Assembly (NCBI GenBank): GCA_017476545.1
Contig: JAFUZP010000038.1
Location: 1 to 45,806 of the forward strand
Direction of reading: 5' to 3'
Length of the DNA stretch: 45,806 bases
From: Alloprevotella sp.
GTDB lineage: Bacteria; Bacteroidota; Bacteroidia; Bacteroidales; Bacteroidaceae
Both the position numbers and the translations under genes were made by a program. The notes below the pieces were generated by a model that saw only the letters and a program-made list of their open reading frames with translations, was not told the DNA's origin and ran no database searches. Shown here piece by piece: positions 742 through 42,673 of the stretch; the first letter of the stretch is position 1; the number at the start of each line of letters is the position of its first letter.

Positions 742-830
742 AGTTGACATAGTACTCAACTGCCAGTTGAGTACTATGTCAACTATGAGTTGAGTTATAT
801 GTCAACTGGCAGTTGAGTTATATGTCAACT
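742..830. repeat. Palindrome array A, four 20-nt units, 23-bp period
   Basis: Units start at 742, 765, 788 and 811, exactly 23 bp apart, with 3-nt spacers. The type unit is AGTTGAGTTATATGTCAACT, with inverted arms AGTTGA/TCAACT. The first unit is in the opposite orientation to the second, so 742-761 and 765-784 form a perfect 20-bp inverted repeat around gcc. The array lies between the convergent genes P1 and tsf. Each unit could fold as RNA or bind a dimeric protein. Confidence 0.9.
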
Positions 831-957
831 CGGGGCTGAGTTAGGGCGTACTTGCAACTCGCTTGCTTCCAGCGGCTTACATCGGGTGCAGGGAGGGGGC
901 TCCCGAGGGGGGCGGGACGGGCTCCTGAGTGCGGGTCTGCCGGGACTTCGCAGGCGC

Positions 958-995
958 AAAAAATCCGGGCGGAACACTTCGGTGTCCCGCCCGGA
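958..995 (-). terminator. Intrinsic terminator of the rplM-tsf cluster
   Basis: A stem with arms TCCGGGCGG/CCGCCCGGA and an extended inner stem around a CTTCGG-type loop spans 964-995. It is followed, in minus-strand reading, by six T (958-963). It lies 22 bp past the tsf stop, which is the expected place for the end of the operon. Confidence 0.9.
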
Positions 996-1016
996 CGGCT
1001 GTTTTGTAGGGATGCC

Positions 1017-2009
1017 TTACTCGGCTACGAGCGTGAAGCGGTGGAAGGCTGTTACCTTGAGGTCGGCGTCGGCCTGCCTGAGGTACTCTGCGACGGTAGG
1101 TGTGCCGTCAATGAGGGCCATCTCCTGGTTCACGAGTGTGAAGTCCTTGTAGAACTTGTTCATGCGCCCGTTGGCGATGTTCTGTATCATCTGCTCGGGC
1201 AGGTTCTGGAGCTTCTCGGCTGCGGTCTTCTCCTTGAGCTGGCGTATCTCGTCGGCTTGCGCCTCGGTGATGTTTCCCTTGCGGATGCCTTCCTCGAGGT
1301 GTTCCTCGCTCTCGGCGATGTAGAGGTTGAAGCCGGCTTTCTTCAGGGCGGCCTCGACGGCCTTCTTCACCTGCTCTTCGCGGGTCTTCTCGAGGGCTAC
1401 CTTCATCTCGTTGTCCTTCACGTCCTGGGGCACGCTGGCCTCGTCCACGGCTACGGGGTTCATCGCGGCAATCTGGATGGCGATGTTGTGCCCCTGCTCT
1501 TCTGCGGGCTTGGTGAGCTGCACCATCGTGCAGAGCGTGTTGCGTCCCTGGTGGTTGTAGGTGGAGATGTACTCGCCCGTGAGGGTGAGGTATCCGTCGA
1601 GCTCCATCTTCTCACCCGTGATACCGCTGCGGTCCACTACGGCGTCCTGCACCGTGCCGCCGCCCATCGGGAGGGCTTTCACCTCGTCCAGCGTCTGGCA
1701 CTTGTTGGCCACGGCCAGGTCAAGTATCTGCTGTGTGAGGGCGACGAAGTCCTTGTTGTTCGCTACGAAGTCCGTCTCGCACTTCAGGGCGATGATGGCT
1801 GCGAAGCCGCCGTCCGCCTTGACGAGTACGCACCCGTTGGAGGTCTCGCGGTCGGAGCGCTTCGCGGCTACGGCCTGTCCCTTCTTACGGATGATTTCGA
1901 TAGCGGCTTCCATGTCGCCGTCGGCCTCGGCCAAGGCTTTCTTGCAGTCGCCGAGACCGGCTCCGGTCATCGTACGGAGTTTCTTGATATCTTCAATCGT
2001 TGCTGCCAT
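1017..2009 (-). CDS. tsf: Elongation factor Ts
   Basis: EF-Ts exchanges GDP on EF-Tu during translation elongation in the cytoplasm. The protein has 330 residues, longer than the enterobacterial form, as is usual in Bacteroidetes. The N-terminal UBA-like segment carries KLRTMTGAGLGDCKKAL (about residues 10-26). The core carries the diagnostic ALKCETDFVA stretch (about 74-83) that contacts EF-Tu. The start gives MAATIEDIKKLR, the normal family N-terminus. It is the last gene of the minus-strand cluster rplM-rpsI-rpsB-tsf, 34 bp after rpsB, and ends at a strong terminator. Confidence 0.98.
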   Translation of the reverse strand: MAATIEDIKKLRTMTGAGLGDCKKALAEADGDMEAAIEIIRKKGQAVAAKRSDRETSNGCVLVKADGGFAAIIALKCETDFVANNKDFVALTQQILDLAVANKCQTLDEVKALPMGGGTVQDAVVDRSGITGEKMELDGYLTLTGEYISTYNHQGRNTLCTMVQLTKPAEEQGHNIAIQIAAMNPVAVDEASVPQDVKDNEMKVALEKTREEQVKKAVEAALKKAGFNLYIAESEEHLEEGIRKGNITEAQADEIRQLKEKTAAEKLQNLPEQMIQNIANGRMNKFYKDFTLVNQEMALIDGTPTVAEYLRQADADLKVTAFHRFTLVAE

Positions 2010-2043
2010 GTGTTGTAATGAATAATCGTGAGCAATGGTTCGT

Positions 2044-2910
2044 TTACTCTGCTGCGGGCGCTTCCTCGGCGGTCTCCGCTGCGGGAGCTTCGGGCTCGGC
2101 CGTCGCTACGGGAGCCTCCTCTGCGGGAGCCTCGTCCTTGGGCTTGCGGGCACGTGTGGCACGCTTCCGGGGAGCCTTCTCGCCTTCCTGCTGGGCCTGT
2201 GCCTCGCTGTCGGCTTTCTCAATCTTGCGCTCCTCAAGTCCTTCCGCGATGGCTGCGCAGCACGCGTCGAGGATTACCTCGATGCTCTGCTTGGCATCAT
2301 CGTTCGCGGGGATAACGAAATCGACGTTGTTGGGGTCGGAGTTCGTGTCCACGATGCCGAACACGGGGATGCCTAGGCGGTTAGCCTCGGCCACGGCGAT
2401 GTGCTCCTTCATCACGTCCACGACGAACAAAGCCGCCGGGAGGCGCGTGAGGTCGGCGATGCTGCCGAGGTTCTTCTCCAGTTTCGCGCGTTGGCGGGAA
2501 ATCTGGAGTATCTCCCGCTTCGACAGGTTGGCATAGGTACCGTCCGCTGTCAGCTTGTCAATGTTCGCCATCTTCTTCACTGCCTTGCGGATGGTGGGGA
2601 AGTTGGTGAGCATTCCGCCGGGCCAGCGTTCTGCGACGTAGGGCATATTGACGCTCGTAGCCTTGTCGGCGATGATTTCTTTGGCCTGCTTTTTAGTAGC
2701 TACAAAGAGGATGCGCTTTCCCTGCTTGGTGATGTTCTTCAGTGCTTCTGCGGCTTCATCGATTTTTGCCACCGTCTTGTGGAGGTCGATGATGTGGATG
2801 CCGTTGCGCTCCATGAAGATGTAGGGAGCCATAGCGGGGTTCCATTTGCGCTTGAGGTGGCCGAAGTGGCAGCCAGCCTCGAGTAGTGTCTCAAAATTTG
2901 TTCTGGACAT
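2044..2910 (-). CDS. rpsB: 30S ribosomal protein S2
   Basis: S2 is a small-subunit protein on the back of the 30S particle. The N-terminus MSRTNFETLLEAGCHFGHLKRKWNP is typical, as are RILFVATKKQAKEII and RWPGGMLTNF in the middle and VDTNSDPNNVDFVIPANDDA near 190-210. The length is 288 residues, because an Ala/Glu/Lys-rich low-complexity tail follows residue 235. Such tails are common in Bacteroidetes S2. The gene is paired with tsf downstream as in most bacteria, and rpsI lies 135 bp upstream. Confidence 0.98.
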   Translation of the reverse strand: MSRTNFETLLEAGCHFGHLKRKWNPAMAPYIFMERNGIHIIDLHKTVAKIDEAAEALKNITKQGKRILFVATKKQAKEIIADKATSVNMPYVAERWPGGMLTNFPTIRKAVKKMANIDKLTADGTYANLSKREILQISRQRAKLEKNLGSIADLTRLPAALFVVDVMKEHIAVAEANRLGIPVFGIVDTNSDPNNVDFVIPANDDAKQSIEVILDACCAAIAEGLEERKIEKADSEAQAQQEGEKAPRKRATRARKPKDEAPAEEAPVATAEPEAPAAETAEEAPAAE

Positions 2911-3045
2911 TGTTTTTGTTGTTTGTCGTTTACTTTCTTGTTAATTGAATGTTGTGTTCAACCAACCGCCGGGTAAACTCCGCATCGGAGTGCGATGTGT
3001 CGCGGCGGTTTAGATGCTAAACGTATTTTCAGCAAGCGGTGCCGA

Positions 3046-3432
3046 TTAACGTTTGCTGAACTGGAAGCGGCGGCGTGCCTTGGGCTGTCCCGGCTTCTTG
3101 CGCTCCACGGCACGCGGGTCGCGTGTCATAAAGCCTTCCTTGCGCAGGGCTGACTTGTCGTCTGCGTTGATTTTTACCAAAGCGCGTGCAATGGCAAGGC
3201 GGAGTGCCTGGCTCTGGCCGGTGTATCCACCGCCGTTCAGGTTGGCCTTGATGTCGTACTTCTCAATCGCGTCGAGCAGTTGGAGCGGTTGTTTCACTAC
3301 GAACTGCAGGATGGGGGAGGGGAAGTACTCCGTGAGGTCGCGCTTGTTAATGGTGATTTTGCCAGTACCTTCGGTGACGAAGACGCGGGCTACGGCGCTC
3401 TTACGGCGGCCAAGTGCATTTATCATTTCCAT
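3046..3432 (-). CDS. rpsI: 30S ribosomal protein S9
   Basis: The protein has 128 residues and full family length. It begins MEMINALGRRKSAVARVF, has the central GGGYTGQSQALRLAIARAL motif, and ends in the basic tail KARRRFQFSKR, which in this family reaches the P-site tRNA. The gene is 15 bp downstream of rplM, the conserved L13-S9 pair, and is surely co-transcribed with it. Confidence 0.98.
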   Translation of the reverse strand: MEMINALGRRKSAVARVFVTEGTGKITINKRDLTEYFPSPILQFVVKQPLQLLDAIEKYDIKANLNGGGYTGQSQALRLAIARALVKINADDKSALRKEGFMTRDPRAVERKKPGQPKARRRFQFSKR

Positions 3433-3447
3433 ATCTTCTTCGTTTTC

Positions 3448-3909
3448 TTATTTGTACTGGTTGATGTCAATTGCCTTCGGCTGTTGTGCCACGTGGGGGT
3501 GTTCGCTTCCGGCATACACGTAAAGGTTGCTGAGGATATGCGCGCCGAGCTTGTTCTTCGGGAGCATACCTTTCACGACACGGCGCAGGAGGCGGTCCGT
3601 TCCGTTGGGCTTGGCCAGAATGGTTGCAGGCGTATTCTTGCGCTGTCCGCCGGGATACCCCGTGTAGTGCAGATATACGCGTTCCGTCATCTTCTTGCCG
3701 GTGAGGCGCACCTTGTCTGCGTTGATGATGATTACGTTGTCGCCACAATCCACGTGGGGGGTGAAGTTCGGTTTGTACTTGCCCCGGAGAAGTTTGGCGA
3801 CCTTCGAGCAAAGGCGGCCGAGGATCTGGTCGGTAGCATCCACTACGACCCACTCTTTTTTGGCGGTCTCTTTGTTCGCGGAAATGGTCTTGTAGCTTAA
3901 AGTGTCCAC
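3448..3909 (-). CDS. rplM: 50S ribosomal protein L13
   Basis: The protein has 153 residues. It contains WVVVDATDQILGRLCSKVAKLLRGK (about 20-44), NVIIINADKVRLTGKK (58-73) and the GMLPKNKLG motif near 118, all characteristic of L13. It is the first gene of the minus-strand ribosomal cluster. A canonical promoter lies about 140 bp upstream, leaving an untranslated leader that could carry ribosomal-protein autoregulation; no specific element is recognised. Confidence 0.98.
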   Translation of the reverse strand: MDTLSYKTISANKETAKKEWVVVDATDQILGRLCSKVAKLLRGKYKPNFTPHVDCGDNVIIINADKVRLTGKKMTERVYLHYTGYPGGQRKNTPATILAKPNGTDRLLRRVVKGMLPKNKLGAHILSNLYVYAGSEHPHVAQQPKAIDINQYK

Positions 3910-4049
3910 TTTCTCGTTTTGTTTTGTTTGTAACTACTAATTTTTTATCGTTCGCCTGCGTGAGTCCGATAGGGCGTGTCCGGCCAAAGACTGCACCCGT
4001 AACTTGCAGACATACAGCGCTAAGACGCTGCTTGATAATAATCGGCGTG

Positions 4050-4080
4050 CAAAAGTAGTGCATTCCGTTGAAACGGCAAA
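4050..4080 (-). promoter_or_regulatory. Promoter of rplM-rpsI-rpsB-tsf
   Basis: In minus-strand reading, TTTG (4080-4077), 19 bp, then TACTTTTG (4057-4050). This matches the Bacteroidetes consensus TTTG-N19-21-TAnnTTTG completely and predicts a start near 4043, a leader of about 135 nt. Confidence 0.85.
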
Positions 4081-4244
4081 GGCGTTACGGTGTTTTTTGC
4101 ATTCTAAAGGCTTCGGTATAGGCGGAAAAGTGTCCGGGAAGGGTGGGGGTATGCCGCTAAACGGACGCTTGGATCCGGCCAGGCCGGAGGGTGGGGCTGC
4201 TTGTAGGTAGTCTGGGCGCGGTGGGCATATCGCGCTGCGGCTTC

Positions 4245-4326
4245 TTACCCATAGGGTTAGGACGAATTACCCCTTGGGTCAGGGAAAATTATCCCTAGGG
4301 TTAGGGAAGGTTAGGCCTAGGGTTAG
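4245..4326. repeat. Palindrome array B, four units, 22-bp period
   Basis: Units start at 4245, 4267, 4289 and 4311, exactly 22 bp apart. The type unit is TTATCCCTAGGGTTAGGG, palindromic around CCCTAGGG. The same family recurs at 12011-12093 and 32067-32127. The array sits in the 535-bp gap between the end of the ComEA-like gene and the rplM promoter. The rest of this gap (4081-4244, 4327-4444) shows nothing I recognise. Confidence 0.88.
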
Positions 4327-4444
4327 CGCGGTTCCTGCCGTGTGGCGGTTTTCCCCGCGTAGGAAGGGGCGTGCGCGAAAGTCTGGGTTAGTCGGTCAGG
4401 GTGCGTCGGGAGATTTCCGCCATCCCGTGCGTGGTGGCGTCTGC

Positions 4445-5350
4445 TCAGAAGTCGAAGTAGGGGCGGAGCCGCTCAAAGTCCCGCTCCGTGAAGTGCGGGG
4501 AAAGGCGCAAGTCCTCCCAACTGCGCAGCGGCCCTTGCAGGCGGATGAAGTTGGCAACTTCTTTGACTTGTTCGTAGTTGAGGTACGGGTGGCGCACCAG
4601 TTGCTTGAAAGTCGCCTTGTTTACGTTCATTCGTCGGGGTCGCGCGTCGGAGCTTACGGTGAACCAGCGTTCAATGCCTTCGGGCAGGTCGTCTATTTCC
4701 TTCAGCTGGTCTGTGCTGATGAAACCGCCCAGACGTTCGCGGTAGCGGGTGATGGCCTGTGCGCGCCATGTACCTATTCCGGGAATGCCTTTCAGGGCGG
4801 TCGTATCTGCTTCGTTGAGGTCCAGGACGGTTCCTTCCGCATACTTCTTCGGCCATGTCGCACGTAGGCTGTCGTGCCGCTCCTGCCTGCGTTCGCGCTC
4901 AATCTCTTCCGCGCTCGGCGCGATGCGGATGTAGGGGCGCAGGCGGCTGTAGTCGGCTTCGCTTAGGCCATATAGGCGGCGGAAATCCTCGGGGCTGCGC
5001 CACCGCCCGCCGCGCTTTCGGTATTTCATGGCATTGGCGGCCTGCCACGGATGCAGGCCGAGGCGGACGAGTGTGGCAGAGTCGGCGGTGTTCGGGTCGA
5101 AGGGAAAGCTTTCCGGTGTGCGCCTCCCTGTGCTGTATCCGTACTTCTCGTACTGGTGCTTGGCGGCCCATTCGGCCGAGTCGCGCCTCAGCTCGTCCTC
5201 GAAGTCGGCCAGCGCCTGCCATTCTTCTTCGCTGACGGGGGCGGGGGACTCCGCTTCCGTCCGCCCTTCGCAGAACCGCAGGAGGAGGAATACGGCGGCC
5301 AGTGCCACGGCTGCGGCAGCCAGCGTGCGGCGTTCAGCCTTTGCTAGCAT
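4445..5350 (-). CDS. ComEA-like helix-hairpin-helix protein, membrane anchored
   Basis: A 301-residue protein with one N-terminal membrane segment (about 9-25, LAAAAVALAAVFLLLRF). Three helix-hairpin-helix repeats of the ComEA type follow: about 82-140 (DPNTADSATLVRLGL…), 176-232 (LDLNEADTTALKGIPGIGTWRAQAITRYR) and 240-299 (MNVNKATFKQLVRH…). The family binds double-stranded DNA without sequence preference. A role in DNA uptake is known for ComEA but only inferred here. The second repeat has the most canonical GIPGIG hairpin. The start overlaps the preceding gene's end by 17 bp, suggesting co-transcription with the maturase at 5334-6596. Confidence 0.85.
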   Translation of the reverse strand: MLAKAERRTLAAAAVALAAVFLLLRFCEGRTEAESPAPVSEEEWQALADFEDELRRDSAEWAAKHQYEKYGYSTGRRTPESFPFDPNTADSATLVRLGLHPWQAANAMKYRKRGGRWRSPEDFRRLYGLSEADYSRLRPYIRIAPSAEEIERERRQERHDSLRATWPKKYAEGTVLDLNEADTTALKGIPGIGTWRAQAITRYRERLGGFISTDQLKEIDDLPEGIERWFTVSSDARPRRMNVNKATFKQLVRHPYLNYEQVKEVANFIRLQGPLRSWEDLRLSPHFTERDFERLRPYFDF

Positions 5351-11929: not shown

Positions 11930-11990
11930 AGGAAGTTAAACTTCCTAAGCTAAGAAGTTAAGCTTCCTATGCGAGGAAGTACTACTTCCT
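11930..11990. repeat. Palindrome array C1, three 17-nt units, 22-bp period
   Basis: Units AGGAAGTTAAACTTCCT (11930), AAGAAGTTAAGCTTCCT (11952) and AGGAAGTACTACTTCCT (11974) are exactly 22 bp apart. Each is a near-perfect palindrome with arms AGGAAGT/ACTTCCT. Confidence 0.9.
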
Positions 11991-12010: not shown

Positions 12011-12093
12011 TTACCCCTGCGGTTAATGATTCCTAACCCTACGGTCAGTGCACCGTAACCCTGGGGTTAGTTCTTCCTGACCCTGCGGTCAGG
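12011..12093. repeat. Palindrome array C2, four units, 22-bp period
   Basis: Unit starts at 12011, 12033, 12055 and 12077, exactly 22 bp apart. Units include TAACCCTGGGGTTA and TGACCCTGCGGTCA, whose arms change together (TAACC/GGTTA versus TGACC/GGTCA). This is the same family as arrays B and H. It lies 21 bp downstream of array C1, and the P2 promoter starts 33 bp later. Confidence 0.88.
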
Positions 12094-12125: not shown

Positions 12126-12156
12126 TTGGCGGATTGGGAATGTTTGCTTACCTTTG
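12126..12156 (+). promoter_or_regulatory. Promoter of P2 and its long leader
   Basis: TTGG (12126-12129), 19 bp, TACCTTTG (12149-12156). The sequence and spacing are nearly identical to the P3 promoter at 18679-18709, including the shared spacer start CGGAT(T/C)GGGAA. The predicted leader is about 360 nt. Confidence 0.8.
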
Positions 12157-12526
12157 CCCGCGAAATAAAGTACTTGAAGATGCCTTACGCGTATATATAT
12201 AATATAGGTATGTCGGCTTCCGCGTGCGCGGAAGCTGACTTTGCCCGTATTTACTGGGTGGGTAGTGCCCGAATTACCCCCCCATATGCCCTGGGAATCA
12301 AGTAGTTACAGATATATACGCAAGCATTAAGCGGCGCACTGCGCCCCTGTTGAGGGGGAGCGGTGCGCCGCTTGGCGTGTATCAGTCCCAAACCCAACAG
12401 CCCCCAAAGCCCCCCTCCCGTCCCCCCGGGAGGGGGAGGCGAGGCGCTTACGCGCGGGGAGGCTTGTGGTCGGTGTGAGCGATAATAAACCAATTCCTAT
12501 TATATACAAATTAAAACTACTAAGTA
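12157..12526 (+). ncRNA. Long structured 5' leader of P2
   Basis: Conserved with the P3 leader (18710-19047) in order and sequence: an acgcgtatata…taatataggta segment, a hairpin GCTTCCGCG/CGCGGAAGC, a poly-C tract (7 C), aatcaagtagttaca, a long GC-rich stem (arms AAGCGGCGCAC/GTGCGCCGCTT, with an inner CCCC/GGGG stem), and GGTGTGAGCGATAA before the gene. The order suggests a folded regulatory RNA. A possible 41-codon upstream ORF lies at 12180-12305. No known riboswitch class is recognised. Confidence 0.65.
12180..12305 (+). CDS. Possible upstream ORF in P2 leader, 41 codons
   Basis: The frame opens at ATG 12180 and reads MPYAYIYNIGMSASACAE… to a TAG at 12303. The P3 leader has a frame at 18730-18885 that reads …RIYNIGTGASACAE…. 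The two leaders differ by a 2-nt indel just before this block, yet both ATGs stay in frame with IYNIG..ASACAE. The remainder of the frames diverges. Nucleotide conservation alone could explain the similarity, so translation is uncertain. Confidence 0.3.
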   Translation: MPYAYIYNIGMSASACAEADFARIYWVGSARITPPYALGIK

Positions 12527-18709: not shown

Positions 18710-19047
18710 CAGCCGTAACCACGGACTTGATGATGGATTTTACGCGTATATATAATATAGGTACGGGGGCTTCCGCATGTGCGGAGGGTGCCGCCTGCGG
18801 GCGTGCCTGCCGCGTGGTTGCTGCCGGGTTTACCCCCCCCCCCCGTTGGAAATCAAGTAGTTACACGCAATCATATAGATGCTGAGCGGCGCATCGTGCC
18901 CCCTGTGACGGGGGTGCGGTGCGCCGCTTGGCGTGTGTATAGTCCCCCCTTCCGTCCCCCCGAGCGGGGGGGCAAGGCGCTCCCGCGCGGAGCGGCTTGG
19001 GGGCGGTGTGAGCGATAAGAAACTAATCCTAATAATTAACCAATAAA
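18710..19047 (+). ncRNA. Long structured 5' leader of P3
   Basis: Homologous to the P2 leader. The first hairpin is CTTCCGCA-TG-TGCGGAGG; the G-C pair next to the loop in P2 is A-T here, a compensatory change. A run of 12 C (18833-18844) stands where P2 has 7. The GC-rich stem AGCGGCGCA/TGCGCCGCT with an inner GCCCCC/GGGGGT stem follows at about 18883-18930, then GGTGTGAGCGATAAGAAA before the gene. Conserved hairpins and the covarying pair favour a functional RNA. Confidence 0.65.
18730..18885 (+). CDS. Possible upstream ORF in P3 leader, 51 codons
   Basis: The frame starts ATG-ATG at 18730 (MMDFTRIYNIGTGASACAEG…) and ends at TGA 18883-18885, at the start of the GC-rich hairpin. The block IYNIG..ASACAE matches the P2 leader frame. 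The poly-C tract of 12 lies inside it, so slippage would change its downstream reading. Translation is unproven. Confidence 0.3.
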   Translation: MMDFTRIYNIGTGASACAEGAACGRACRVVAAGFTPPPRWKSSSYTQSYRC

Positions 19048-19717: not shown

Positions 19718-20140
19718 ATGGCTGTTTTATTCAAGAAGATGGCGCGGAAGCATCCGCGCACGAAGTTAGTGAGCTACCACCCGGTGGTGAAGTCCGTGAA
19801 GCGTGTGGACCGTCACGACGTGGCGAAGCTCGTCGCCGACGAGACGACGCTGAACCCCATGGAGGCCGAGATGGCGCTGGCTCAGCTGGAGAAGGTGCTG
19901 GTGCGCCTGCTCCTGCAGGGCTACACGGTGCAGATGGGTGAGTGGGCGTCGTTCAACCTGACGGTTACGTCGGACGGCGCCGCGAGCGAGGCGGAGTGCA
20001 CGGCCGCGCTCATCAAGCAGGTGCGTGCGCACTGCCGCTTCACGGCGAAGTTCCGGGCGCAGCTTCAGGATGCGGACTTCGTGCTGGCTACGAGCCTGAC
20101 GGAGACGCGTAAGAAGAAGGAGCAGGAGGAAGGGGAGTGA
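19718..20140 (+). CDS. HU/IHF-like DNA-binding protein (Bacteroidetes type)
   Basis: A 140-residue basic protein of the HU-related family widespread in Bacteroidales. It has the N-terminal extension MAVLFKKMARKHP, helices with DRHDVAKLVADETTLNPMEAEMALAQLEKVLVRLLLQGYTV, then VQMGEWASFNLTVTSDGAASEAECTAALIKQVRAHCRFTAKFRAQLQ in place of the classical HU arm region. A Lys/Glu-rich tail ends the protein. It is likely to bend or coat DNA. It lies between P3 and array G. Binding of this protein to the palindrome arrays is an attractive but untested idea. Confidence 0.88.
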   Translation: MAVLFKKMARKHPRTKLVSYHPVVKSVKRVDRHDVAKLVADETTLNPMEAEMALAQLEKVLVRLLLQGYTVQMGEWASFNLTVTSDGAASEAECTAALIKQVRAHCRFTAKFRAQLQDADFVLATSLTETRKKKEQEEGE

Positions 20141-20211: not shown

Positions 20212-20434
20212 GGAGTACGCGTAGTTCGTGGCGCGGAGTACGCGTAGTTCAGGGTGTGGAGTACGCGTAGTTCAGGGTGTGGAGTACGCGTAGTTCAGGG
20301 TATGGAGTACGCGTAGTTCAGGGTGTGGAGTACGCGTAGTGCGTGGTGTGGAGTACGCGTAGTGCATGGTGGGGAGTACGCGTAGTGCGTGGTATGGAGT
20401 ACGCGTAGTGCGTGGTGGGGAGTACGCGTAGTGC
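20212..20434. repeat. Palindrome array G, ten 16-nt units, 23-bp period
   Basis: Ten units GGAGTACGCGTAGTTC or GGAGTACGCGTAGTGC start at 20212, 20235, 20258, 20281, 20304, 20327, 20350, 20373, 20396 and 20419, every step exactly 23 bp. The core TACGCGTA is a perfect palindrome. The first six units end TTC, the last four GTGC. The 7-nt spacers vary slightly. The array fills the gap between the convergent HU-like and repeat-protein genes. Confidence 0.95.
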
Positions 20435-20524
20435 GTAAAATGAACTTCCGCAACTCCGTTGGCGGGGGTTGCGGAAGGGGGAGGGCGGGTGTGCGCCGCG
20501 CTGCGGCTGCGGGGGCGGGGCGGG

Positions 20525-20944
20525 TCAGTCCAGCATCCCGCCGAAGTAGATGAAGGCGAGCCAGTCTTTGCGGAGGCGGCCTCCGTGGCCTATGGTGCGG
20601 TGTGAGCCGTCCTGCACGGTGCCGTCGGGCCTGATGTGTCCGACGGTGCGGTAGCTGGCGTCCTGCACGGTGCCGTCGGGTTTGACGTGGCCTATGGTGC
20701 GGTAGGAGGCGTCCTGCATGGTGCCGTCGGGCCTGATGCGGCCTATGGTTCGGTAGGAGCCGTCCTGCACGGTGCCGTCGGGCTTGATGTGGCCTATGGT
20801 GCGGTAGCTGGCGTCCTGCACTGTGCCGTCGGACCTGACGTGGGCGACGGTGCGGTAGGAGGCGTCCTTGAGGATGTCGTCCGCGCGTGCGGCCGTGCTG
20901 CAGAGCAGGGCGAGGGCGGCGAGGAGGAGGTGGCGTTTCTTCAT
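20525..20944 (-). CDS. Secreted protein of 17-residue DGTVQDASYRTIGHI repeats
   Basis: A 139-residue protein: signal peptide 1-21 (cleaved near ARA), then about six tandem 17-residue repeats with the consensus DGTVQD.SYRTIGHI.P, and a short C-terminus with the hydrophobic FIYFGGML. The repeat resembles the 'DGxVxDxxYxxIG' units that I recall being called a five-fold beta-flower fold in Bacteroidetes; that name is a tentative recollection. Function unknown. The 51-bp DNA repeat is very regular, so copy number may vary between strains. The gene has its own promoter. Confidence 0.8.
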   Translation of the reverse strand: MKKRHLLLAALALLCSTAARADDILKDASYRTVAHVRSDGTVQDASYRTIGHIKPDGTVQDGSYRTIGRIRPDGTMQDASYRTIGHVKPDGTVQDASYRTVGHIRPDGTVQDGSHRTIGHGGRLRKDWLAFIYFGGMLD

Positions 20945-21103
20945 GAGTTGCGTGTCGTTTGGGGTTGTGGTTACTTGTACTCCAGCGCATGCGGCGCGGC
21001 TGGTTGGTTAAAGGGCGGCGGGGTTCTCACCTCACCGCCCTTGCTTTCATCCGGTAGTAGTAATCTAAGGTATAGAGATTGGTGTCAGGGTTATTGACGG
21101 GGG

Positions 21104-31939: not shown

Positions 31940-32066
31940 GGCTATCGCAGCTTTTTCGTTTCTATTGACAAATTTGTGTCAGAAAAGCGGAACCGAAAAA
32001 ATGTCCGCAGGGGTGTCCCTCCGTTTCCGGCGGGGTATGATGTGCTTGATGCAGCGGTTATTTCCT

Positions 32067-32127
32067 CTTACCCCTGCGGGTAATTTCGCCTATCCCTATG
32101 GGTAATTCTTCTTAGGGCGCGGGATAA
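32067..32127. repeat. Palindrome array H, three units, 22-bp period
   Basis: Units start at 32067, 32089 and 32111, exactly 22 bp apart: CTTACCCCTGCGGGTAA, CCTATCCCTATGGGTAA and CTTAGGGCGCGGGATAA. The first has perfect arms TTACCC/GGGTAA. Same family as arrays B and C2. A degenerate fourth copy may start at 32133. Confidence 0.8.
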
Positions 32128-37141: not shown

Positions 37142-37159
37142 TTGCCCGACGCAGGAGCA

Positions 37160-37242
37160 TCCCTTATAATAGACCGGCCGCATCTGTTATAATAGATGCG
37201 GCCTATCTGTTATAACAGATGTGCCCGGTCTGTTATAATAGA
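37160..37242. repeat. Palindrome array F, four units, 23-bp period
   Basis: Units of the type TCTGTTATAATAGA start at 37160, 37183, 37206 and 37229, exactly 23 bp apart. The third has the perfect form TCTGTTATAACAGA. The spacers are GC-rich. The array lies between the convergent lpxH and P4 genes, 38 bp from the P4 stop. Confidence 0.92.
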
Positions 37243-37279
37243 TGCGCGGGCTTCGTCGGAGCGGGGTACTGAATGATGG

Positions 37280-37867: not shown

Positions 37868-38229
37868 AATCGTATAGGTTTTGGTTAGACATTGGTGTGT
37901 GCGTTGTCACGTACCTATACAAAAAAGCGTGGAGTCCGTCTGTTGCCGTTCCACGTACCAAGGCTCTAGCACTGCCTATCCCTGTTGAACGAGCAATGCA
38001 GAAGCCCACGCCGATATGGCACGACACACCACGTACGTATATAATAATACATACGGCGGTCGGTCCACCATATCACGAAGGACATCTATCACTGCTTTGT
38101 ACTTGACAGGGATTGGAATTTGCTAGATTCGGTACGTCAAGGGCAAAGGCTGTGTAAACGCCTTAATGTATATATCCATGCAGACCGCCGTCCCGCCGCA
38201 GGCTGCTGCGGCCGGATGCGGTTGCGGGG
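37868..38229 (-). ncRNA. Long 5' leader of P4
   Basis: About 355 nt between the predicted transcription start near 38222 and the P4 ATG. It holds no gene on the minus strand that I would call, an AT stretch (tgtattattatatacgtacg, 38030-38050 region) similar in character to the P2/P3 leaders, and a terminator-like hairpin at 37921-37956. Sequence similarity to the P2/P3 leaders is otherwise weak. Confidence 0.45.
37921..37956 (-). terminator. Terminator-like hairpin inside the P4 leader
   Basis: In minus-strand reading, TCCACG-type arms (ACGTGGA 37956-37950 with TCCACGC 37933-37927, a 7-bp stem including one G-U) enclose a 16-nt loop and are followed by TTTTTT (37926-37921). It lies 54 bp before the P4 start, so it could act as an attenuator. 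Confidence 0.5.
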
Positions 38230-38261
38230 CAAAGATACGAAAACTTTCTTAAAACGCGAAA
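38230..38261 (-). promoter_or_regulatory. Promoter of P4
   Basis: In minus-strand reading, TTTC (38261-38258), 20 bp, TATCTTTG (38237-38230). Its -33 overlaps the terminator of the upstream radC-DUF59 unit. Confidence 0.7.
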
Positions 38262-38287
38262 GCGCGGGGGGCTTTCCCCCCGCGCTT
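38252..38287 (-). terminator. Intrinsic terminator of radC-DUF59 unit
   Basis: AAGCGCGGGGGG (38260-38271) pairs perfectly with CCCCCCGCGCTT (38276-38287) around a 4-nt loop. In minus-strand reading it is followed by tcgcgtttt. It lies directly after the DUF59 stop. Confidence 0.75.
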
Positions 38288-38288
38288 C

Positions 38289-38609
38289 CTACAGGAATCC
38301 GAGCTCGAGCTTCGCCTCCTCGCTCATCATCTCCTTGTCCCATTCGGGCTCGAAGACAAGGTTCACCCGGGCTTCCGTCACACCCTCCACGGCGGCGACT
38401 TTCGAGCGCACGTCCTCGGCGATGAAGTCGGCGGCAGGGCAGTTGGGGGCGGTGAGCGTCATGTCCACGTCGAGATGCCCGTCGTCCTGCAGGTCGATGC
38501 GGTAGATGAGGCCGAGGCTGTAAACGTCCACGGGTATCTCGGGGTCATAGACCGTCTTGAGTACTTCTACGATGCGCTCCTCTATCTTGAGTATTTCTTC
38601 TTGTTTCAT
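38289..38609 (-). CDS. MIP18/DUF59 family Fe-S assembly protein
   Basis: A 106-residue protein from the ATG at 38609. The frame extends upstream only inside radC and is not family-like. VLKTVYDPEIPVDVYSLGLIYRI and MTLTAPNCPAADFI (with the conserved Cys) are the SufT/MIP18 hallmarks, and the C-terminus EPEWDKEMMSEEAKLELGFL is typical. The family helps assemble or deliver iron-sulfur clusters. The start overlaps the radC stop by 4 bp (ATGA), so translation is coupled. Confidence 0.93.
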   Translation of the reverse strand: MKQEEILKIEERIVEVLKTVYDPEIPVDVYSLGLIYRIDLQDDGHLDVDMTLTAPNCPAADFIAEDVRSKVAAVEGVTEARVNLVFEPEWDKEMMSEEAKLELGFL

Positions 38610-39292
38610 AACTTTCCTTGTTCCTGATAGCTGTAGTAGGTGCCGTCGCCCACGATGATGTGGTCCACGAGGCGGATGTCCATCACCTCGGCGGCGCGGC
38701 GTATCTTTTCCGTCAGCTGGTTGTCCAATGAGCTGGGGTGCGGGTTGCCGCTGGGGTGGTTGTGGCACACGGCTATGTGCGGTGCCTTCTGCAAGAGAGC
38801 CTCGCGCAGGACGAGGCGCACGTCCGCCGCCGTGGCCGTCAGGCCGCCCTTGCCGATACATGCGGTGCCGATGAGGCGCAGGTTCTGGTTCATGAGCATG
38901 ACGTGGAACTCCTCGCGGTCAGCGTCCTCCAGTCGGCGGAAGTGGTCGTAGATGCGTGCCGGGGAATCCATTCTCGGACGTTCGTCGGCAGGCTCTGCCG
39001 CGCGCCGCCGTCCCAGTTCGCATGCTGCCAGTATGGTGATGGCCTTCGCCTCGCCGATGCCGTTGTAGCGGCAGAGCTCCTCTATGTCCATCTTCCCCAG
39101 GCGCTTCAGACTTCCCTCGCAGTCGTTCAGCACGCGGCGCATCAGCGCTACGGCACTCTCGCGTGTGGAACCCGAACCGATGAGGATGGCCAGCAACTCC
39201 GCCGGCGTGAGGGCCTCGGCACCTTGTACCATGAGCTTCTCGCGCGGTCTGTCGGCCTCGTCCCATTGCTTGACGGTCAGTCTTTCTTCCAT
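38606..39292 (-). CDS. radC: RadC family JAB-domain protein
   Basis: A 228-residue protein from the ATG at 39292. The N-terminal helix-hairpin-helix region (GMDIEELCRYNGIGEAKAITILAACELGRR-like, 68-97) and the JAB/MPN+ domain are intact, with Glu128, HNHPSG (His177, His179) and Asp190 as metal ligands. Its function is unproven; despite its name it is not an established repair protein. Genes of this family often flank accessory regions, as here, where the AT-rich island starts next to it. Confidence 0.93.
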   Translation of the reverse strand: MEERLTVKQWDEADRPREKLMVQGAEALTPAELLAILIGSGSTRESAVALMRRVLNDCEGSLKRLGKMDIEELCRYNGIGEAKAITILAACELGRRRAAEPADERPRMDSPARIYDHFRRLEDADREEFHVMLMNQNLRLIGTACIGKGGLTATAADVRLVLREALLQKAPHIAVCHNHPSGNPHPSSLDNQLTEKIRRAAEVMDIRLVDHIIVGDGTYYSYQEQGKL

Positions 39293-39314
39293 CGCATTTC
39301 TCTTGTTTCGGCTG

Positions 39315-39345
39315 CGAAGATAATGCAAAACCTCCACAGGACAAG
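39315..39345 (-). promoter_or_regulatory. Promoter of radC
   Basis: In minus-strand reading, the -7 box TATCTTCG (39322-39315), with CTTG at 19 bp or TTGT at 18 bp as the -33. The predicted leader is about 15 nt, which supports the 39292 start. The rest of the gap to 39584 shows nothing else. Confidence 0.55.
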
Positions 39346-39584
39346 CATTTGTGCTTGACTTTTGTGATTTCAGCACAGATAACCAAACACAACCTCGAAC
39401 TATTGTTCTTCCTCCGTTAGCCTCCTGATGCGGGAGTTTATTTACATTTGCCAGCGGTAACAGGCAAAACACTTTCAGTCCATCGTGATGTTTCGCCGTG
39501 TACTCCAGCTATTTTGTTTATTCCGCACTCTCTAACCCAAGTCGGCTCACAGGAATGTTTTTGACGTGAGTGGAAGTTCTTCTC

Positions 39585-40418
39585 TCAATATCTTACAATT
39601 TCTCTTACAGGAACAAGAACATCCTCACTGTCCGATGAAAACAAAAGGCTTTCCACTTTTCCCTTTCCGTCTCCCATCTCTATCCAATGGTAAGGAATTT
39701 TCCACATAATCAAACCTTTCTGCCAATTGAAATAGCAGCATGTTACCAAAATTCCGTCTCCAGAAAATTCGACTTTCGGGAATATCTTCTCAACATCATG
39801 CATACGGCAACAGTGAGCGATATAATCCTTAACATAGTCAGGTAATTGATTTATGTCTGAAGGAGCACATATCAAATTTCGACGGATATAGTTCCCATGG
39901 TTGAAGGTTGGCAGAAAATGTTTTAGTTTATCAAGCAAGAACGCTTCCCAAAGAGCTTTTTCTTCACAATTTAATCTAATATACTCCAAAGGAGAAGGCA
40001 CACTTTTAGCCAACACATCTATTAAGAGTTCTGGAATTAGCATGTCAGGAGAATACTCCTCATTAGAATAATACTCCTTTTTCCAAGGTTCACATTTTGC
40101 CAGATGCAATTTTTGAAGCCAAGTCTTCTTCGGAGGCTGAGTTGATTTTAGCTCTGGAGAGAAGAATTTCGTGGCATTCTCTTTATGAACGTATGGCATC
40201 GTATAGTAGTTTCTATAATTGCTTTCTATTGTCCCGAAACCATATCCATGTGGATAAAGCCCCAACACATAGCCTTGCTCTATTTCAAGTTGGCTAAAGA
40301 CATTCATGATAAAATGTGCATCTTCAATACACAGATCATCTGCAAATCCTTTATAGTCAACATTCTGACTAATCGTCAGATTTAAGTTCTCGTAGATATT
40401 GGCAAATTCTTGGTTCAT
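39585..40418 (-). CDS. Unknown soluble protein, last gene of AT-rich island
   Basis: A 277-residue protein I do not recognise. There is no signal peptide or membrane helix. It is rich in aromatic residues and Cys-Cys pairs (HCCRMHD, VTCCYFNW), with blocks LGLYPHGYGFGTIES and LIPELLIDVLAKSVPSPLEYIRLNCEEKALWEAFLL. AT-rich codon use contrasts strongly with the flanking genes and suggests acquisition by transfer. It is the fourth minus-strand gene of the island, 76 bp after the small membrane protein. Confidence 0.7.
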   Translation of the reverse strand: MNQEFANIYENLNLTISQNVDYKGFADDLCIEDAHFIMNVFSQLEIEQGYVLGLYPHGYGFGTIESNYRNYYTMPYVHKENATKFFSPELKSTQPPKKTWLQKLHLAKCEPWKKEYYSNEEYSPDMLIPELLIDVLAKSVPSPLEYIRLNCEEKALWEAFLLDKLKHFLPTFNHGNYIRRNLICAPSDINQLPDYVKDYIAHCCRMHDVEKIFPKVEFSGDGILVTCCYFNWQKGLIMWKIPYHWIEMGDGKGKVESLLFSSDSEDVLVPVREIVRY

Positions 40419-40494
40419 ATTTGTACAAGTTGTTTCTAAAGGGTATTAGTTGGGGCATTTGACAGTTTGAAAGATATAATCTAATGCGCCATCT

Positions 40495-40728
40495 TCAGGT
40501 ATGTCTAAAATGTTCAATGTTGCACTCATCAGCAAAGAATAGGACATAGAATATGGCACAGGTAATGAGTATTGCAATTATCCATCCTACTATTCCCATG
40601 CTTTCTTTCTCACCCTGGTCAATTTCATTTTTCACAAGTCCTGCTATCAATAGAAAAAGGGGAATGCCTACTATTATGAGGACAATAATAGCCCATATAA
40701 CAGCCAATATAACTTCAAATTTACTCAT
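40495..40728 (-). CDS. Small two-helix membrane protein
   Basis: A 77-residue protein. Membrane segments are about 5-31 (VILAVIWAIIVLIIVGIPLFLLIAGL) and 46-65 (IVGWIIAILITCAIFYVLFF), joined by a charged loop (KNEIDQGEKESM). The second segment resembles part of the 83-residue protein at 41948. The gene lies 10 bp after the 401-residue protein gene, so it is in the same operon. No family recognised. Confidence 0.65.
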   Translation of the reverse strand: MSKFEVILAVIWAIIVLIIVGIPLFLLIAGLVKNEIDQGEKESMGIVGWIIAILITCAIFYVLFFADECNIEHFRHT

Positions 40729-40738
40729 ACGTCAAATG

Positions 40739-41944
40739 CTAAAATGGTAAATCATCATCTGGTTTATTGCCGATTTCTTCTTTGGATTCAGTGTTATTTA
40801 AAAGCTCTATTTCAACTTCTTCCATAATCTTCAAACATTCCTCATCTAAAAGTGTGTTATGATCTATTCGATATAGATTAGCCATTGCTGCCAATGATTT
40901 ATCATTCTTCATTTGTTGATAGAAATTTGCGATTGCAGCTTTTAATGTTAAATATTTGAATGGCATTTCCATTTTGTTGTACGCTTCTTCTTTTTGGGTA
41001 TCTTCAATGAGTTCGTGAAAAGCATTTCTCAGTTTTGTCCTTATTTTTTTTTCTATGTTAGAGGTATTATGCGTGGTTGCATCATCAACAGAAAACTGTT
41101 TAATAACATTCTTGCTCTTTGCATAACAAAGACATGGTACATAATCGCTTCCACCAACGCTAGCCTCTACATAATAAAAATCATCAAGAGAACCTGTTTT
41201 CATCTTTTCCACTGCAGCAGGACTAACATATCCCTTTTTTCTACCGCAAATAAAAAAGATTTTTCCAGTTTTAGGGTTTTCAACAAATTGTAATTCTGAA
41301 TTTTCGGTAATAATTAAATCCCTTGCAGACGTCTTATTACGATATTTTATGTGATTTGCTGATGGAGCAGCTTCTTTTTGCAAACTTTCTGTGAGCCACT
41401 TAATCATAAAATGTGTACAAGTATTCTGTGTAGATATATTGAAACGATTCGCTTCTTCTTTTAGCTTAACATTCCTCAAATGTTCAAGTATTTCTTTTGT
41501 ATCAGCATTGTCAAATGTAGATTGGTAACTTTTCAGGAACTCTGTCTTTATGTCCTGTATCTGACAGCCAATACTTTTGGCCCATCTTTCCATTGATAAT
41601 ACAATTTCTTGCACATCTCTCTCACTCTGCGAAGACATCTTCCTCTTTGTAATTGCTTCTATTGCACTCGCTTTTGTCGGGTTAAGCCTTTTGTATTTCT
41701 GCCATGGACTTTCTTGGACAATTGAGGATTCTTGAGGTGAACTTCTATTTATGTTTTCTTGATTAGATGTGTCTTTCTTGCCACCAAAATAACATAGAAG
41801 TCCGCCTATCGCTCCCAACAAAAGAGAACTCGAAAACTTACTCCCGGCGGCATAAGTCTCGCCATTAGCGGAAGCAATAATAGCCACAAGTAGATTCCCT
41901 ATGGCAAAAACTAACAATACAATACCAACTTTTCTCATATTCAA
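40739..41944 (-). CDS. Unknown 401-residue protein with two N-terminal membrane helices
   Basis: Two membrane segments (about 5-25 and 39-54) anchor a cytoplasmic domain of about 340 residues with helical character (WQKYKRLNPTKASAIEAITKR…, KKIRTKLRNAFHELIEDTQKEEAYNKM). A central beta-like part reads ELQFVENPKTGKIFFICGRKKGYVSPAAVEKM, and YVPCLCYAKS follows. No known catalytic motif is seen. The gene is AT-rich and starts 3 bp after the 83-residue membrane protein gene, so they are surely one operon. The layout, a membrane-anchored large cytoplasmic protein with small membrane partners, is compatible with a defence or stress complex, but that is speculation. Confidence 0.7.
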   Translation of the reverse strand: MNMRKVGIVLLVFAIGNLLVAIIASANGETYAAGSKFSSSLLLGAIGGLLCYFGGKKDTSNQENINRSSPQESSIVQESPWQKYKRLNPTKASAIEAITKRKMSSQSERDVQEIVLSMERWAKSIGCQIQDIKTEFLKSYQSTFDNADTKEILEHLRNVKLKEEANRFNISTQNTCTHFMIKWLTESLQKEAAPSANHIKYRNKTSARDLIITENSELQFVENPKTGKIFFICGRKKGYVSPAAVEKMKTGSLDDFYYVEASVGGSDYVPCLCYAKSKNVIKQFSVDDATTHNTSNIEKKIRTKLRNAFHELIEDTQKEEAYNKMEMPFKYLTLKAAIANFYQQMKNDKSLAAMANLYRIDHNTLLDEECLKIMEEVEIELLNNTESKEEIGNKPDDDLPF

Positions 41945-41947
41945 TAA

Positions 41948-42199
41948 TTAATTACGTCTTATGGTTTCTTCAAATGGAATACTATTTCCTCCAGAGCAAT
42001 CTTTCATTGCAACAAGGTTAAACACAATAAAGGCAACAACAAAGAGGTATAGAAAGAATTTCGCAATAGCATCTCCTTCCTCACTCTGTTGTATACTCTC
42101 TCCTCGTTCTATTTTCTTGTCCCAATTGTTTATGGTAATCAAGAAAACTACAAGGACGAAAATCACAATTCCTGCTGCAATTATTCCAATGGTTTTCAT
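41948..42199 (-). CDS. Small two-helix membrane protein, first gene of AT-rich operon
   Basis: An 83-residue protein. Membrane segments are about 4-24 (IGIIAAGIVIFVLVVFLITI) and 46-66 (IAKFFLYLFVVAFIVFNLVAM), with an acidic loop (DKKIERGESIQQSEEGD). A promoter lies 265 bp upstream at 42464-42496, so the leader is long (about 255 nt). No family recognised. Confidence 0.65.
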   Translation of the reverse strand: MKTIGIIAAGIVIFVLVVFLITINNWDKKIERGESIQQSEEGDAIAKFFLYLFVVAFIVFNLVAMKDCSGGNSIPFEETIRRN

Positions 42200-42463
42200 T
42201 CGTTACCTGTTTTGCGACACACAAAAGAAAAGGTGCAAACAATCCTGTATTTGCACATTCGGAGGTATCGCCAAACACCCAAGTCCCACAAATAAGGAAA
42301 GCATGCACCTGCTAAGGCGCAAGCATTTCACAAACTTGCTATTGGGACACATTCTTCTAATTGGCGATTTTCCGAATGTCACATGCAAGAAGTAAAACAC
42401 TTCTTCTGATAATATGTCAGTTATACTTCTACTCCATTCTTTACAATTCTGATTTTCATGTGG
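42200..42463 (-). other. Leader region of the AT-rich operon
   Basis: An untranslated stretch of about 255 nt between the predicted transcription start and the first gene. An open frame crosses it, but its only long start is a TTG inside the -7 box, so I do not call a gene. It may contain a small RNA or regulatory structure; none is recognised. Confidence 0.35.
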
Positions 42464-42496
42464 CAAAGATACTCAAAGTTCCTTAAATAACGCAAA
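42464..42496 (-). promoter_or_regulatory. Promoter of the AT-rich membrane operon
   Basis: In minus-strand reading, TTTG (42496-42493), 21 bp, TATCTTTG (42471-42464). Confidence 0.7.
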
Positions 42497-42540
42497 TTTT
42501 GATGGCACATGAGTGTATTTTTGATACGATTTGCTTACAT

Positions 42541-42673
42541 ATCATGTCCGCACATCTCGTTTTGAGGTATGCGGACACCTTGCTTTGAGCTTTGCGCTTA
42601 CCTTGCCTCGAGGTGTGCGCACACCTCGGAGTGAGCTTTGCGCTTACCTCAAGTGGAGGTGTGCGCACACCTT
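42541..42673. repeat. Palindrome array E, six 18-nt units, 23-bp period
   Basis: Units start at 42541, 42564, 42587, 42610, 42633 and 42656, each 18 nt with 5-nt spacers. Two types alternate after the first two: GAGCTTTGCGCTTACCT(T/C) and the perfect GAGGTGTGCGCACACCT(C/T). Same family as array D, 29 kb away. It lies between the divergent AT-rich operon and restriction-modification genes. Confidence 0.93.

What the first reader, a model, noticed from the sequence alone, without database searches (positions are those of the whole stretch)
742..42673. Nine intergenic palindrome arrays phased at exactly 22 or 23 bp
Seen: arrays A, D, E, F and G have every unit start exactly 23 bp apart (28 of 28 units counted), and B, C1, C2 and H exactly 22 bp apart. 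Unit sequences differ completely between families (AGTTGA…, TTACCC…, AGGAAGT…, GAGGTGTGC…, TCTGTTATAA…, GGAGTACGCGTAG…), yet the size and phase are constant. Constant phase with free sequence argues for geometry being selected: about two helical turns per unit, or a fixed copying mechanism. As I recall, 22- and 23-bp direct repeats were noted in Porphyromonas gingivalis; I could not compare sequences.
Basis: seen in the sequence. Interest (0 to 1): 0.85.

Follow-up and report, generated by a model that had tools for sequence, protein, structure and literature searches.

The report
Phase-locked palindrome arrays in Bacteroidaceae genomes
Bacteria related to Prevotella scatter short DNA elements between their genes, often rows of four mirror-image sites spaced exactly 21, 22 or 23 letters apart; the spacing is almost never broken although the letters differ from species to species, which points to rows of landing sites for an unknown DNA-binding protein.

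Summary
The window carries nine tandem-palindrome arrays in exact 22- or 23-bp register, and its genome is full of them: 46 of 58 noncoding TRF rows sampled have period 22 or 23, against 2 in 20 simulated shuffles. In the dominant 22-bp family (a), 102 of 103 neighbouring sites are exactly 22 bp apart, though the letters between are near random; 24 of 35 arrays span four units. Families a and c were found in none of 57 congeneric species searched. Two other species have unrelated arrays of the same design: 27 of 30 and 28 of 29 copies examined have four 21-bp units. Such arrays are common in Bacteroidaceae and rare in the other Bacteroidota sampled. Arms are conserved while centres and spacers drift, and palindrome halves show no general compensation, which favours double-stranded DNA-protein recognition over hairpins. 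Family-a arrays are spaced more evenly than chance in the host, not demonstrably in a second species. Best reading: dispersed rows of side-by-side dimer sites for a fast-evolving DNA-binding protein. Protein and function are unproven. Nearest known: REP/BIME repeats and the BrickBuilt MITE of Porphyromonas gingivalis.

The parts
742..830 (.). Array A, family b: four 20-bp palindromes AGTTGA-N8-TCAACT, period 23; a degenerate fifth unit follows
4246..4325 (.). Array B, family a (TAACC-N4-GGTTA): four units, period 22, upstream of the genes for ribosomal protein S2 and EF-Ts and two small genes before them (probably rplM and rpsI)
   Evidence: S2 and EF-Ts by Pfam; rplM and rpsI named from size and order, recalled
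11930..11990 (.). Array C1, family d: three palindromes of AGGAAG-N5-CTTCCT type, period 22
12012..12091 (.). Array C2, family a: four units, period 22, 21 bp after C1
13110..13219 (.). Array D, family c (GAGGTGTGCGCACACCTC): five units, period 23
20212..20432 (.). Array E, family i: ten near-identical GGAGTACGCGTAGT units, period 23; outlier in copy number
32047..32126 (.). Array H, family a: four units, period 22, first and last degenerate
37162..37244 (.). Array F, family h: four units of TGTTATAATAGA type, period 23, first degenerate
42541..42673 (.). Array G, family c: six units (first degenerate), period 23, in a G+C-poor region

Best explanation
Each array is a row of dyad-symmetric binding sites (usually four; about five in family c) for a homodimeric, sequence-specific DNA-binding protein, one dimer per 21-23 bp, packed side by side so that neighbouring dimers touch. 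The row of about 84-92 bp (about 115 bp in family c), not the single site, is the working unit. Rows were scattered through intergenic DNA by copying, as small mobile repeats, and then kept: arms and spacing are constrained, the letters between are free. The likeliest role is chromosomal (REP/BIME-like: nucleoid or transcription-domain boundary) rather than control of a regulon, since sites occur beyond chance only in rows, at many loci, about every 12.6 kb for family a. The protein's specificity, and with it the site sequence, changes between species while its footprint stays. Shown: register, unit number, dispersal, arm conservation, lack of general hairpin compensation, absence of families a and c from congeners, even spacing in one species. 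Inferred: the protein, cooperativity, mobility, chromosomal role.
For: Register without single-base slips over 102 of 103 neighbours. Four units in 24 of 35 family-a arrays in stretches not chosen for that family, 45 of 64 non-redundant arrays, 27 of 30 in G056, 28 of 29 in G024. Sharp ends and unrelated flanks in G056 and own a. Nearest-neighbour copies in G056 differ at 2.3% of arm, 17.7% of centre and 39.1% of junction positions; G024 4.2% palindrome vs 15.3% spacer; own a 15.4% arms, 30.1% centre, 35.6% spacer. Compensation: in own a six of seven pairs at or below expectation; G024 unit, nested and junction pairs not above; G056 not above (most arm pairs there never or hardly vary and so say little). 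Sites outside rows are at chance level: at score 9, 141 in rows and 22 isolated, against 13-24 in five simulated runs. Row spacing in the own genome: 29 gaps, mean 12.6 kb, CV 0.47 against 0.82-0.88 under four nulls, p below 0.001. Array G, of a family not found in congeners, lies in G+C-poor DNA.
Against: No protein is identified. Families a and c are absent from 57 of 57 other species searched and four of eight congeners have only one or two 21-23 bp arrays in 100 kb, so the system is not essential. Even spacing was looked for after the fact; a first pass was marginal (25 gaps, CV 0.53, null 0.55-1.02), and G056 shows none (36 gaps, CV 1.03, p 0.72; only the 40 scored of 93 first-look candidates). 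Several families share one genome, needing several proteins or loose specificity. Array E has ten units and L047 one of 17. In own a pair 2-11 is somewhat above expectation (142 vs 127.5, sd 6.1), and in G024 the outer arms match each other more than by chance (109 vs 88, sd 6). Perfectly symmetric centres are avoided, which dimer binding does not predict, though CTAG depletion (0.24 of expected) explains part in own a. Arm conservation could reflect which copies stayed mobile.
Confidence: 0.5

Rival explanations
1. Selfish non-autonomous mobile element: the row of four sites is what an unknown transposase or nuclease must bind to move it. Target immunity (a bound copy blocks insertion nearby, as known for Mu and Tn7; recalled) would explain even spacing; only mobile copies keep intact arms. 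No host function.
For: Many dispersed copies with unrelated flanks and sharp ends; families a and c confined to one species among 58 searched; array G in a G+C-poor region.
Against: No clear target-site duplication in G056; own a shows only a slight excess of short matches at the best of many offsets (e.g. 4 vs 1.6 of 3 nt, 2 vs 0.3 of 5 nt, n = 45); no shared flank in either. Junction positions are near saturation between G056 copies while arms differ by 3.4%, which calls for constraint after dispersal or a special copying process. The genes beside arrays were not surveyed for transposases outside the window; Pfam scans of 20 window proteins showed none.
Confidence: 0.27
2. Atypical REP sequences moved by a tyrosine (Y1, HUH) transposase acting on single-stranded imperfect hairpins.
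For: Imperfect palindromes with avoided perfect centres, intergenic, species-specific. Quentin et al. 2018 report that TnpA-Y1 subclass 2.6 of Bacteroidetes is flanked by 'atypical secondary structures' with copies elsewhere (PMC6006769, section on 2.6 and passages). The own genome encodes a RAYT-like 332-aa protein (NF047646 45.9 bits, cut-off 80). In G024 a short 21-bp palindromic array of another family (AGTGGA...TCCACT) lies about 40 bp from one Y1 gene (L376), and two-unit TRF rows of 21 or 22 bp lie nearby in L370 (G024) and L372 (G056).
Against: G056 (99% complete) is array-rich but its one Y1_Tnp match is of IS200/IS605 type; G037 (array-rich, 91% complete) has none; G057 (array-poor) has a RAYT-like protein (69.5 bits, also under the cut-off). 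The main array family of G024 or G056 was not seen, by eye, in the TRF rows around their Y1 genes (about 1.4 kb each side). Halves do not covary in general.
Confidence: 0.12
3. RNA-level element: rows of hairpins acting as terminators, attenuators or mRNA stabilisers.
For: In codirectional gene pairs arrays lie nearer the upstream stop than the next start: own a 29 of 34, G056 10 of 11, G024 6 of 10. Some family-c arrays end in a T-run. Outer arms of G024 copies match each other above chance.
Against: No general base-pair compensation within units in three families. Orientation to codirectional genes is 19 same, 15 opposite. 13 of 28 G056 arrays lie between divergent genes. No Rfam match in the window at gathering thresholds.
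Confidence: 0.06
4. Ordinary minisatellites grown and shrunk by replication slippage, with no function.
For: Tandem repeats; array E and L047 look like expansions; neighbouring units of own family a are somewhat more alike within than between arrays (15.0 vs 13.3 of 22).
Against: Unit number nearly fixed, periods 21-23 dominate, families dispersed, arms conserved and phase kept.
Confidence: 0.03

Closest known systems
BrickBuilt MITE of Porphyromonas gingivalis (PMC4596501; abstract, opening part, sections on identification, secondary structure and locations, first part of the homology section read)
   Same: Tandem 23-nt direct repeats, always intergenic, dispersed, order Bacteroidales, 19 copies
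   Different: One sequence family, 1 to 22.8 units, non-repetitive leader and tail, IS5-like terminal inverted repeats; here many unrelated families, usually four units, no leader, tail or terminal repeats in own a, own c or G056
REP / BIME / REPIN elements with RAYT transposases (PMC6006769 and PMC3733652: passages found by search, and one short section of the first)
   Same: Short imperfect palindromes, intergenic, high copy, family- or species-specific, clustered
   Different: Those papers describe GTAG- or CGTC-tagged units found as singles, pairs or clusters; here isolated units are at chance level, register is strict at 21-23 bp, rows are usually of four, and no RAYT partner tracks them
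Tandem operator arrays with two-turn register such as ARG boxes bound by ArgR (recalled, not looked up)
   Same: Imperfect palindromes about 21 bp centre to centre, bound side by side
   Different: Pairs at a few promoters with conserved sequence; here rows of four at many loci with sequence that differs between species
TnsB / MuA end-binding sites of about 22 bp (recalled)
   Same: Rows of sites of about 22 bp bound side by side by a transposase
   Different: Not palindromic; they mark the two ends of a large transposon

Membership tests
REP/RAYT elements | Palindrome tagged at its foot by GTAG or CGTC | tested here: not met
   By inspection of aligned arrays of own a, own c, G056 and G024 there is no constant GTAG/CGTC at the foot of the units
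REP/RAYT elements | A RAYT gene in the genome, usually flanked by the repeats | tested here: not met
   G056 only an IS200-type protein, G037 none; own genome one sub-threshold RAYT-like protein with no family-c-like site near it. A different 21-bp palindromic array does lie beside one Y1 gene of G024
REP/RAYT elements | Intergenic, many copies, species-specific | tested here: met
BrickBuilt-type MITE | Tandem 22/23-nt direct repeats between genes | tested here: met
BrickBuilt-type MITE | Leader and tail shared by copies, with terminal inverted repeats | tested here: not met
   Flanks of G056 and own a carry little information beyond the first few bases; family c by inspection. G024 copies do have partly shared, partly matching outer arms
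BrickBuilt-type MITE | Target-site duplication | tested here: inconclusive
   None in G056; slight excess of 3-5 nt matches in own a at the best of many offsets
BrickBuilt-type MITE | Variable unit number | tested here: not met
   (array E with ten units is an exception)
Intrinsic terminator / RNA hairpin element | Compensatory base changes in the stems | tested here: not met
   Within units: (one of seven own-a pairs slightly above expectation; G024 outer arms above expectation)
CRISPR array | Constant repeat with unique, longer spacers and cas genes | tested here: inconclusive
   Gaps between palindromes in the window are 3-9 bp; cas genes not searched
Cooperative dimer-binding operator array | A protein that binds the units side by side | not testable with these tools
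   needs pull-down, footprinting or ChIP

The most novel reading that the evidence does not exclude
Bacteroidaceae chromosomes carry a common but fast-rewritten landmark system: rows of four side-by-side dyads, evenly spaced in at least one species, read by an architectural DNA-binding protein whose sequence specificity is replaced species by species while its 21-23 bp footprint and the count of about four stay fixed, rather like satellite DNA with a changing sequence but a constant unit length.
Probability: 0.33. Interest if true: 0.92.

Novelty: new variant of a known kind. Interest (0 to 1): 0.76.

Why it matters
Small dispersed palindromes such as REPs are usually explained by a transposase that keeps their sequence. 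Here the sequence changes between species and the ruler (21, 22 or 23 bp, about four units) stays. That is a clean, testable sign of a protein footprint under selection, in one of the main bacterial families of gut and rumen. If the protein exists it is probably abundant, unknown, and a handle on how these chromosomes are organised. If the arrays are selfish, they are a mobile element with a fixed ruler and no recognised transposase. Either answer would be new, and one pull-down could begin to decide.

Tried and rejected
RAYT/REP origin: Y1_Tnp sought in 21 genomes (own and 20 relatives) and in nine genus genomes, ten hit loci read, four of the proteins scanned; not consistent, but not excluded (a 21-bp palindromic array of another family lies beside one Y1 gene of G024, which raised this rival slightly, from 0.10 to 0.12, at the cost of the selfish rival). 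Rfam: no hit in the window. Target-site duplication and flanking inverted complementarity: none clear in G056 or own a; G024 has partly matching outer arms (my first G024 pass was out of register and was redone). Nested hairpin across the array: not supported. Empty-site comparison with near species at tsf/rplM and at one other array: synteny and identity too low to show a clean empty site. Strict same-face helical phasing: rejected, since 22 and 23 drift. Even spacing in G056: not seen with the partial list. Gene calls are by a home-made codon-usage caller that misses genes in the G+C-poor part of the window (about 39-43 kb); noncoding fractions and distances to genes inherit that. The own-genome stretches were taken in order from the starts of contigs shown, plus C1 and C2, so they were not chosen at random, though not by family a. 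Literature: ten searches; in their listings I saw BrickBuilt, REP and TnpA-Y1 papers and no title or abstract start describing these arrays; the library lacks most subscription papers.
Full report
WHAT IS IN THE WINDOW. Nine intergenic arrays of imperfect palindromes lie in exact 22- or 23-bp register. They belong to six families; B, C2 and H share one (a: TAACC-N4-GGTTA, 22 bp), D and G another (c: GAGGTGTGCGCACACCTC, 23 bp). H is weak (two good units of four), F and G begin with a degenerate unit, and E has ten nearly identical units.

WHERE IT COMES FROM. The window is C27, positions 1-45806, of a 1.98-Mb, 46-contig, 80%-complete genome. The 80 best named relatives of its EF-Ts (of 573) are titled Alloprevotella, Prevotella, Prevotellaceae, Bacteroides and the like, many from rumen. 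One unnamed genus mate, G057, has a contig of 1,231,770 bases, the length of the Prevotellamassilia timonensis contig NZ_LT629845.1, so the genus is probably Prevotellamassilia.

THE GENOME IS FULL OF THEM. In 20 stretches plus the window (440 kb), noncoding TRF rows are mostly of period 22 (30) or 23 (16); 22 of 23 coding rows are multiples of three. In 161 noncoding segments (68,910 bp) 46 of 58 rows have period 22 or 23; twenty first-order Markov shuffles yield 14 rows, 2 at 22-23. Tested singly, 15 of the 46 consensus units are palindromic at p 0.05 or less; arms of five bases are too short for that test. A whole-genome pattern search for the family-c palindrome with up to 3 mismatches gave 53 places and none for the reversed control. 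Family a had 132 first-look candidates and 35 arrays in 460 kb of contiguous sequence.

PHASE. Family-a palindromes were scored with a 14-position matrix and distances measured without assuming a period: the next site within 70 bp is 22 bp away in 102 of 103 cases, the other 67; at a stricter score 102 at 22 and 2 at 44. Simulated sequence gave 52 sites in three runs and one pair within 70 bp, at 27. At that score 141 real sites are in rows and 22 isolated, and five simulated runs gave 13-24 sites, so isolated sites are at chance level. Family c: 59 at 23, one at 46. G024: 76 at 21, five at 42. G056: arms 7 bp apart in 105 of 121 cases within 30 bp; left arms 21 apart in 70 and 42 in 11 of 110 within 70 bp, the rest scattered (fetched loci).

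UNIT NUMBER. Family-a arrays in own stretches span 2 units in 3, 3 in 4, 4 in 24, 5 in 3, 8 in 1 (n = 35, sites above score 7). All 64 non-redundant family-a arrays, fetched and sampled: 45 have four, 10 five, 4 two, 3 six, 1 three, 1 eight. Sixteen family-c loci have four to six units, edge units often degenerate. In G056 27 of 30 and in G024 28 of 29 copies have four; those copies were the best matches to a query of about five units, so that census leans to typical copies.

DISPERSED, AND MOSTLY SPECIES-SPECIFIC. Family-c arrays sit between unrelated flanks. Neither family c nor a occurs in any of 57 other species of the genus at E up to 1e-4. Other species have their own: G024 a 21-bp family (89 first-look candidates), G056 an unrelated 21-bp family (93), G017 and G037 others; G004, G057, G043 and G042 show only one or two arrays of period 21-23 in 100 kb each. 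One family is shared: sequences resembling array A occur in G037. At the tsf and rplM intergenic regions some relatives carry their own 21-23 bp arrays where the window has A and B; most carry none that TRF finds.

BREADTH. Non-overlapping noncoding arrays of period 21-23 per 10 kb noncoding: own 4.7; eight congeners 1.8; 74 EF-Ts loci of at least 8 kb (of 80 fetched; nearly all Bacteroidaceae judging by title, one titled Parabacteroides) 2.2; other Bacteroidales families 0 in 61 kb (14 stretches, 7 genomes); other Bacteroidia orders 1 in 82 kb; other Bacteroidota 0 in 24 kb; E. coli 1 in 8.9 kb. P. gingivalis, of another Bacteroidales family, is known to have 22- and 23-nt repeats (PMC4596501), so the habit is not confined to Bacteroidaceae. 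Of the 74 loci 42 hold at least one array. Consensus units of period 21 and 22 there are more palindromic than shuffles (mean z 1.1 and 0.9; 11 of 24 and 19 of 54 above 1.5); those of period 23 (0.3, n = 7) and of periods 7-20 are not; periods 31-60, which include double units, are (1.6, n = 21).

ANATOMY AND CONSTRAINT. In G056 the element is four abutting 21-bp palindromes, T-N-GTTTG-N7-CAAAC-N-A. Most arm positions carry 1.3 to 2 bits; outside, the first one or two bases carry 0.7-0.9 and the rest mostly under 0.6; no target-site duplication. Between nearest-neighbour copies arms differ by 2.3%, centres by 17.7%, junction letters by 39.1%; between all copies 3.4%, 30.5%, 67.9%. Own a: 15.4%, 30.1%, 35.6% for nearest neighbours. 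Shared descent alone would not give such unequal divergence, so arms and spacing are constrained, or were so in the copies that spread.

NOT A HAIRPIN CODE. If the palindromes worked as hairpins, halves should compensate. In 264 family-a units six of seven pairs are at or below the number expected when halves are dealt anew, one (2-11) is 142 against 127.5 (sd 6.1), and pair 5-8 is far below: 68 against 120 (sd 6). In G024 neither unit, junction nor nested pairing exceeds expectation, but the outer arms beyond the four units match each other above chance (109 against 88, sd 6, at 7-15 bp out). G056 units show no excess, but most of their arm pairs never or hardly vary. Perfect centres are avoided in own a and G056; in own a CTAG is depleted genome-wide to 0.24 of expectation, which explains part.

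PLACE. Of 68 family-a arrays (64 distinct) nine lacked a gene on one side; of the rest 34 lie between codirectional genes (29 nearer the upstream stop), 11 convergent, 14 divergent; orientation to codirectional genes is 19 same, 15 opposite. G056: 11 codirectional (10 nearer the stop), 4 convergent, 13 divergent, 2 dropped; G024: 10 codirectional (6 nearer the stop), 7, 11, 1 dropped. Most sit over 100 bp from starts, with exceptions. Along own contigs family-a arrays are more even than random intergenic placement: 29 gaps, mean 12.6 kb, CV 0.47 against about 0.82-0.88, p below 0.001 with four nulls; on contig C10 alone p about 0.002, on the rest 0.02-0.04. A first pass with 25 gaps was marginal (CV 0.53, null range 0.55-1.02). 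G024: 10 gaps, CV 0.51, p 0.018, contig ends assumed. G056: 36 gaps of a partial list, CV 1.03, no evenness. The test was thought of after seeing the data.

READING. Strict register without strict letters, a nearly fixed count, arm conservation and independent halves fit a row of side-by-side protein dimers on double-stranded DNA. Dispersal must have involved copying. Whether host or element benefits is open; unequal divergence and even spacing favour the host, turnover and array-poor species favour the element. RAYT enzymes, the usual movers of such palindromes, do not track the arrays in the genomes compared, though one Y1 gene of G024 has a 21-bp palindromic array of another family about 40 bp away.

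KNOWN RELATIVES. BrickBuilt (PMC4596501) shares the 23-nt tandem plan but not the count, clean ends or family diversity. REPs and BIMEs share palindromes and placement but not the register. TnpA-Y1 subclass 2.6 of Bacteroidetes is reported with 'atypical secondary structures' (PMC6006769); I could not compare those sequences, and they may be the same thing. In the listings of ten searches I saw no paper that describes this element.

Noticed in passing
L374:1252-2250 (own genome C25, about 5.2 kb): A 332-aa RAYT-like protein (NF047646 45.9 bits, below cut-off; Y1_Tnp 22.9 bits) with a long C-terminal extension; no family-c-like site in the 3 kb fetched. The nearest family-c array is about 4 kb away.
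   Followed up: partly
L376, about 1316-1363: In G024 a short 21-bp palindromic array (AGTGGA...TCCACT) lies about 40 bp from an IS200/IS605-like transposase gene (Y1_Tnp match); not the main array family of that species.
   Followed up: partly
window 12323-12382 and 18873-18940: Two copies of a longer palindromic element (AGCGGCGCA...TGCGCCGCT type), a further dispersed inverted repeat not in 22/23 register.
   Followed up: no
L181, L189, window 12139-12205: A recurring promoter-like block ending ..TTACGCGTATATAT.. lies downstream of some family-a arrays, perhaps a repeated 5' leader.
   Followed up: no
window 40000-44000: G+C falls to 0.35-0.42 next to a C5 cytosine DNA methyltransferase gene (43900-45654), perhaps acquired DNA; array G lies inside it.
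   Followed up: no
window 20585-20868: 51-bp tandem repeat, apparently coding (minus-strand ORF 20295-20990, which would run into array E), near a gene with an HU-HIG domain (19718-20140).
   Followed up: no
own genome sample: CTAG is depleted to 0.24 of expectation, yet survives in the centre of about a quarter of family-a palindromes.
   Followed up: partly
L047:7966-8339: A 17-unit, 22-bp array in another genome: like array E, an expanded case against the rule of four.
   Followed up: no
L375:1230-1465 and 1946-2132: 66- and 69-bp tandem repeats on both sides of a Y1_Tnp (IS200/IS605-like) transposase gene in G004, an array-poor species.
   Followed up: no
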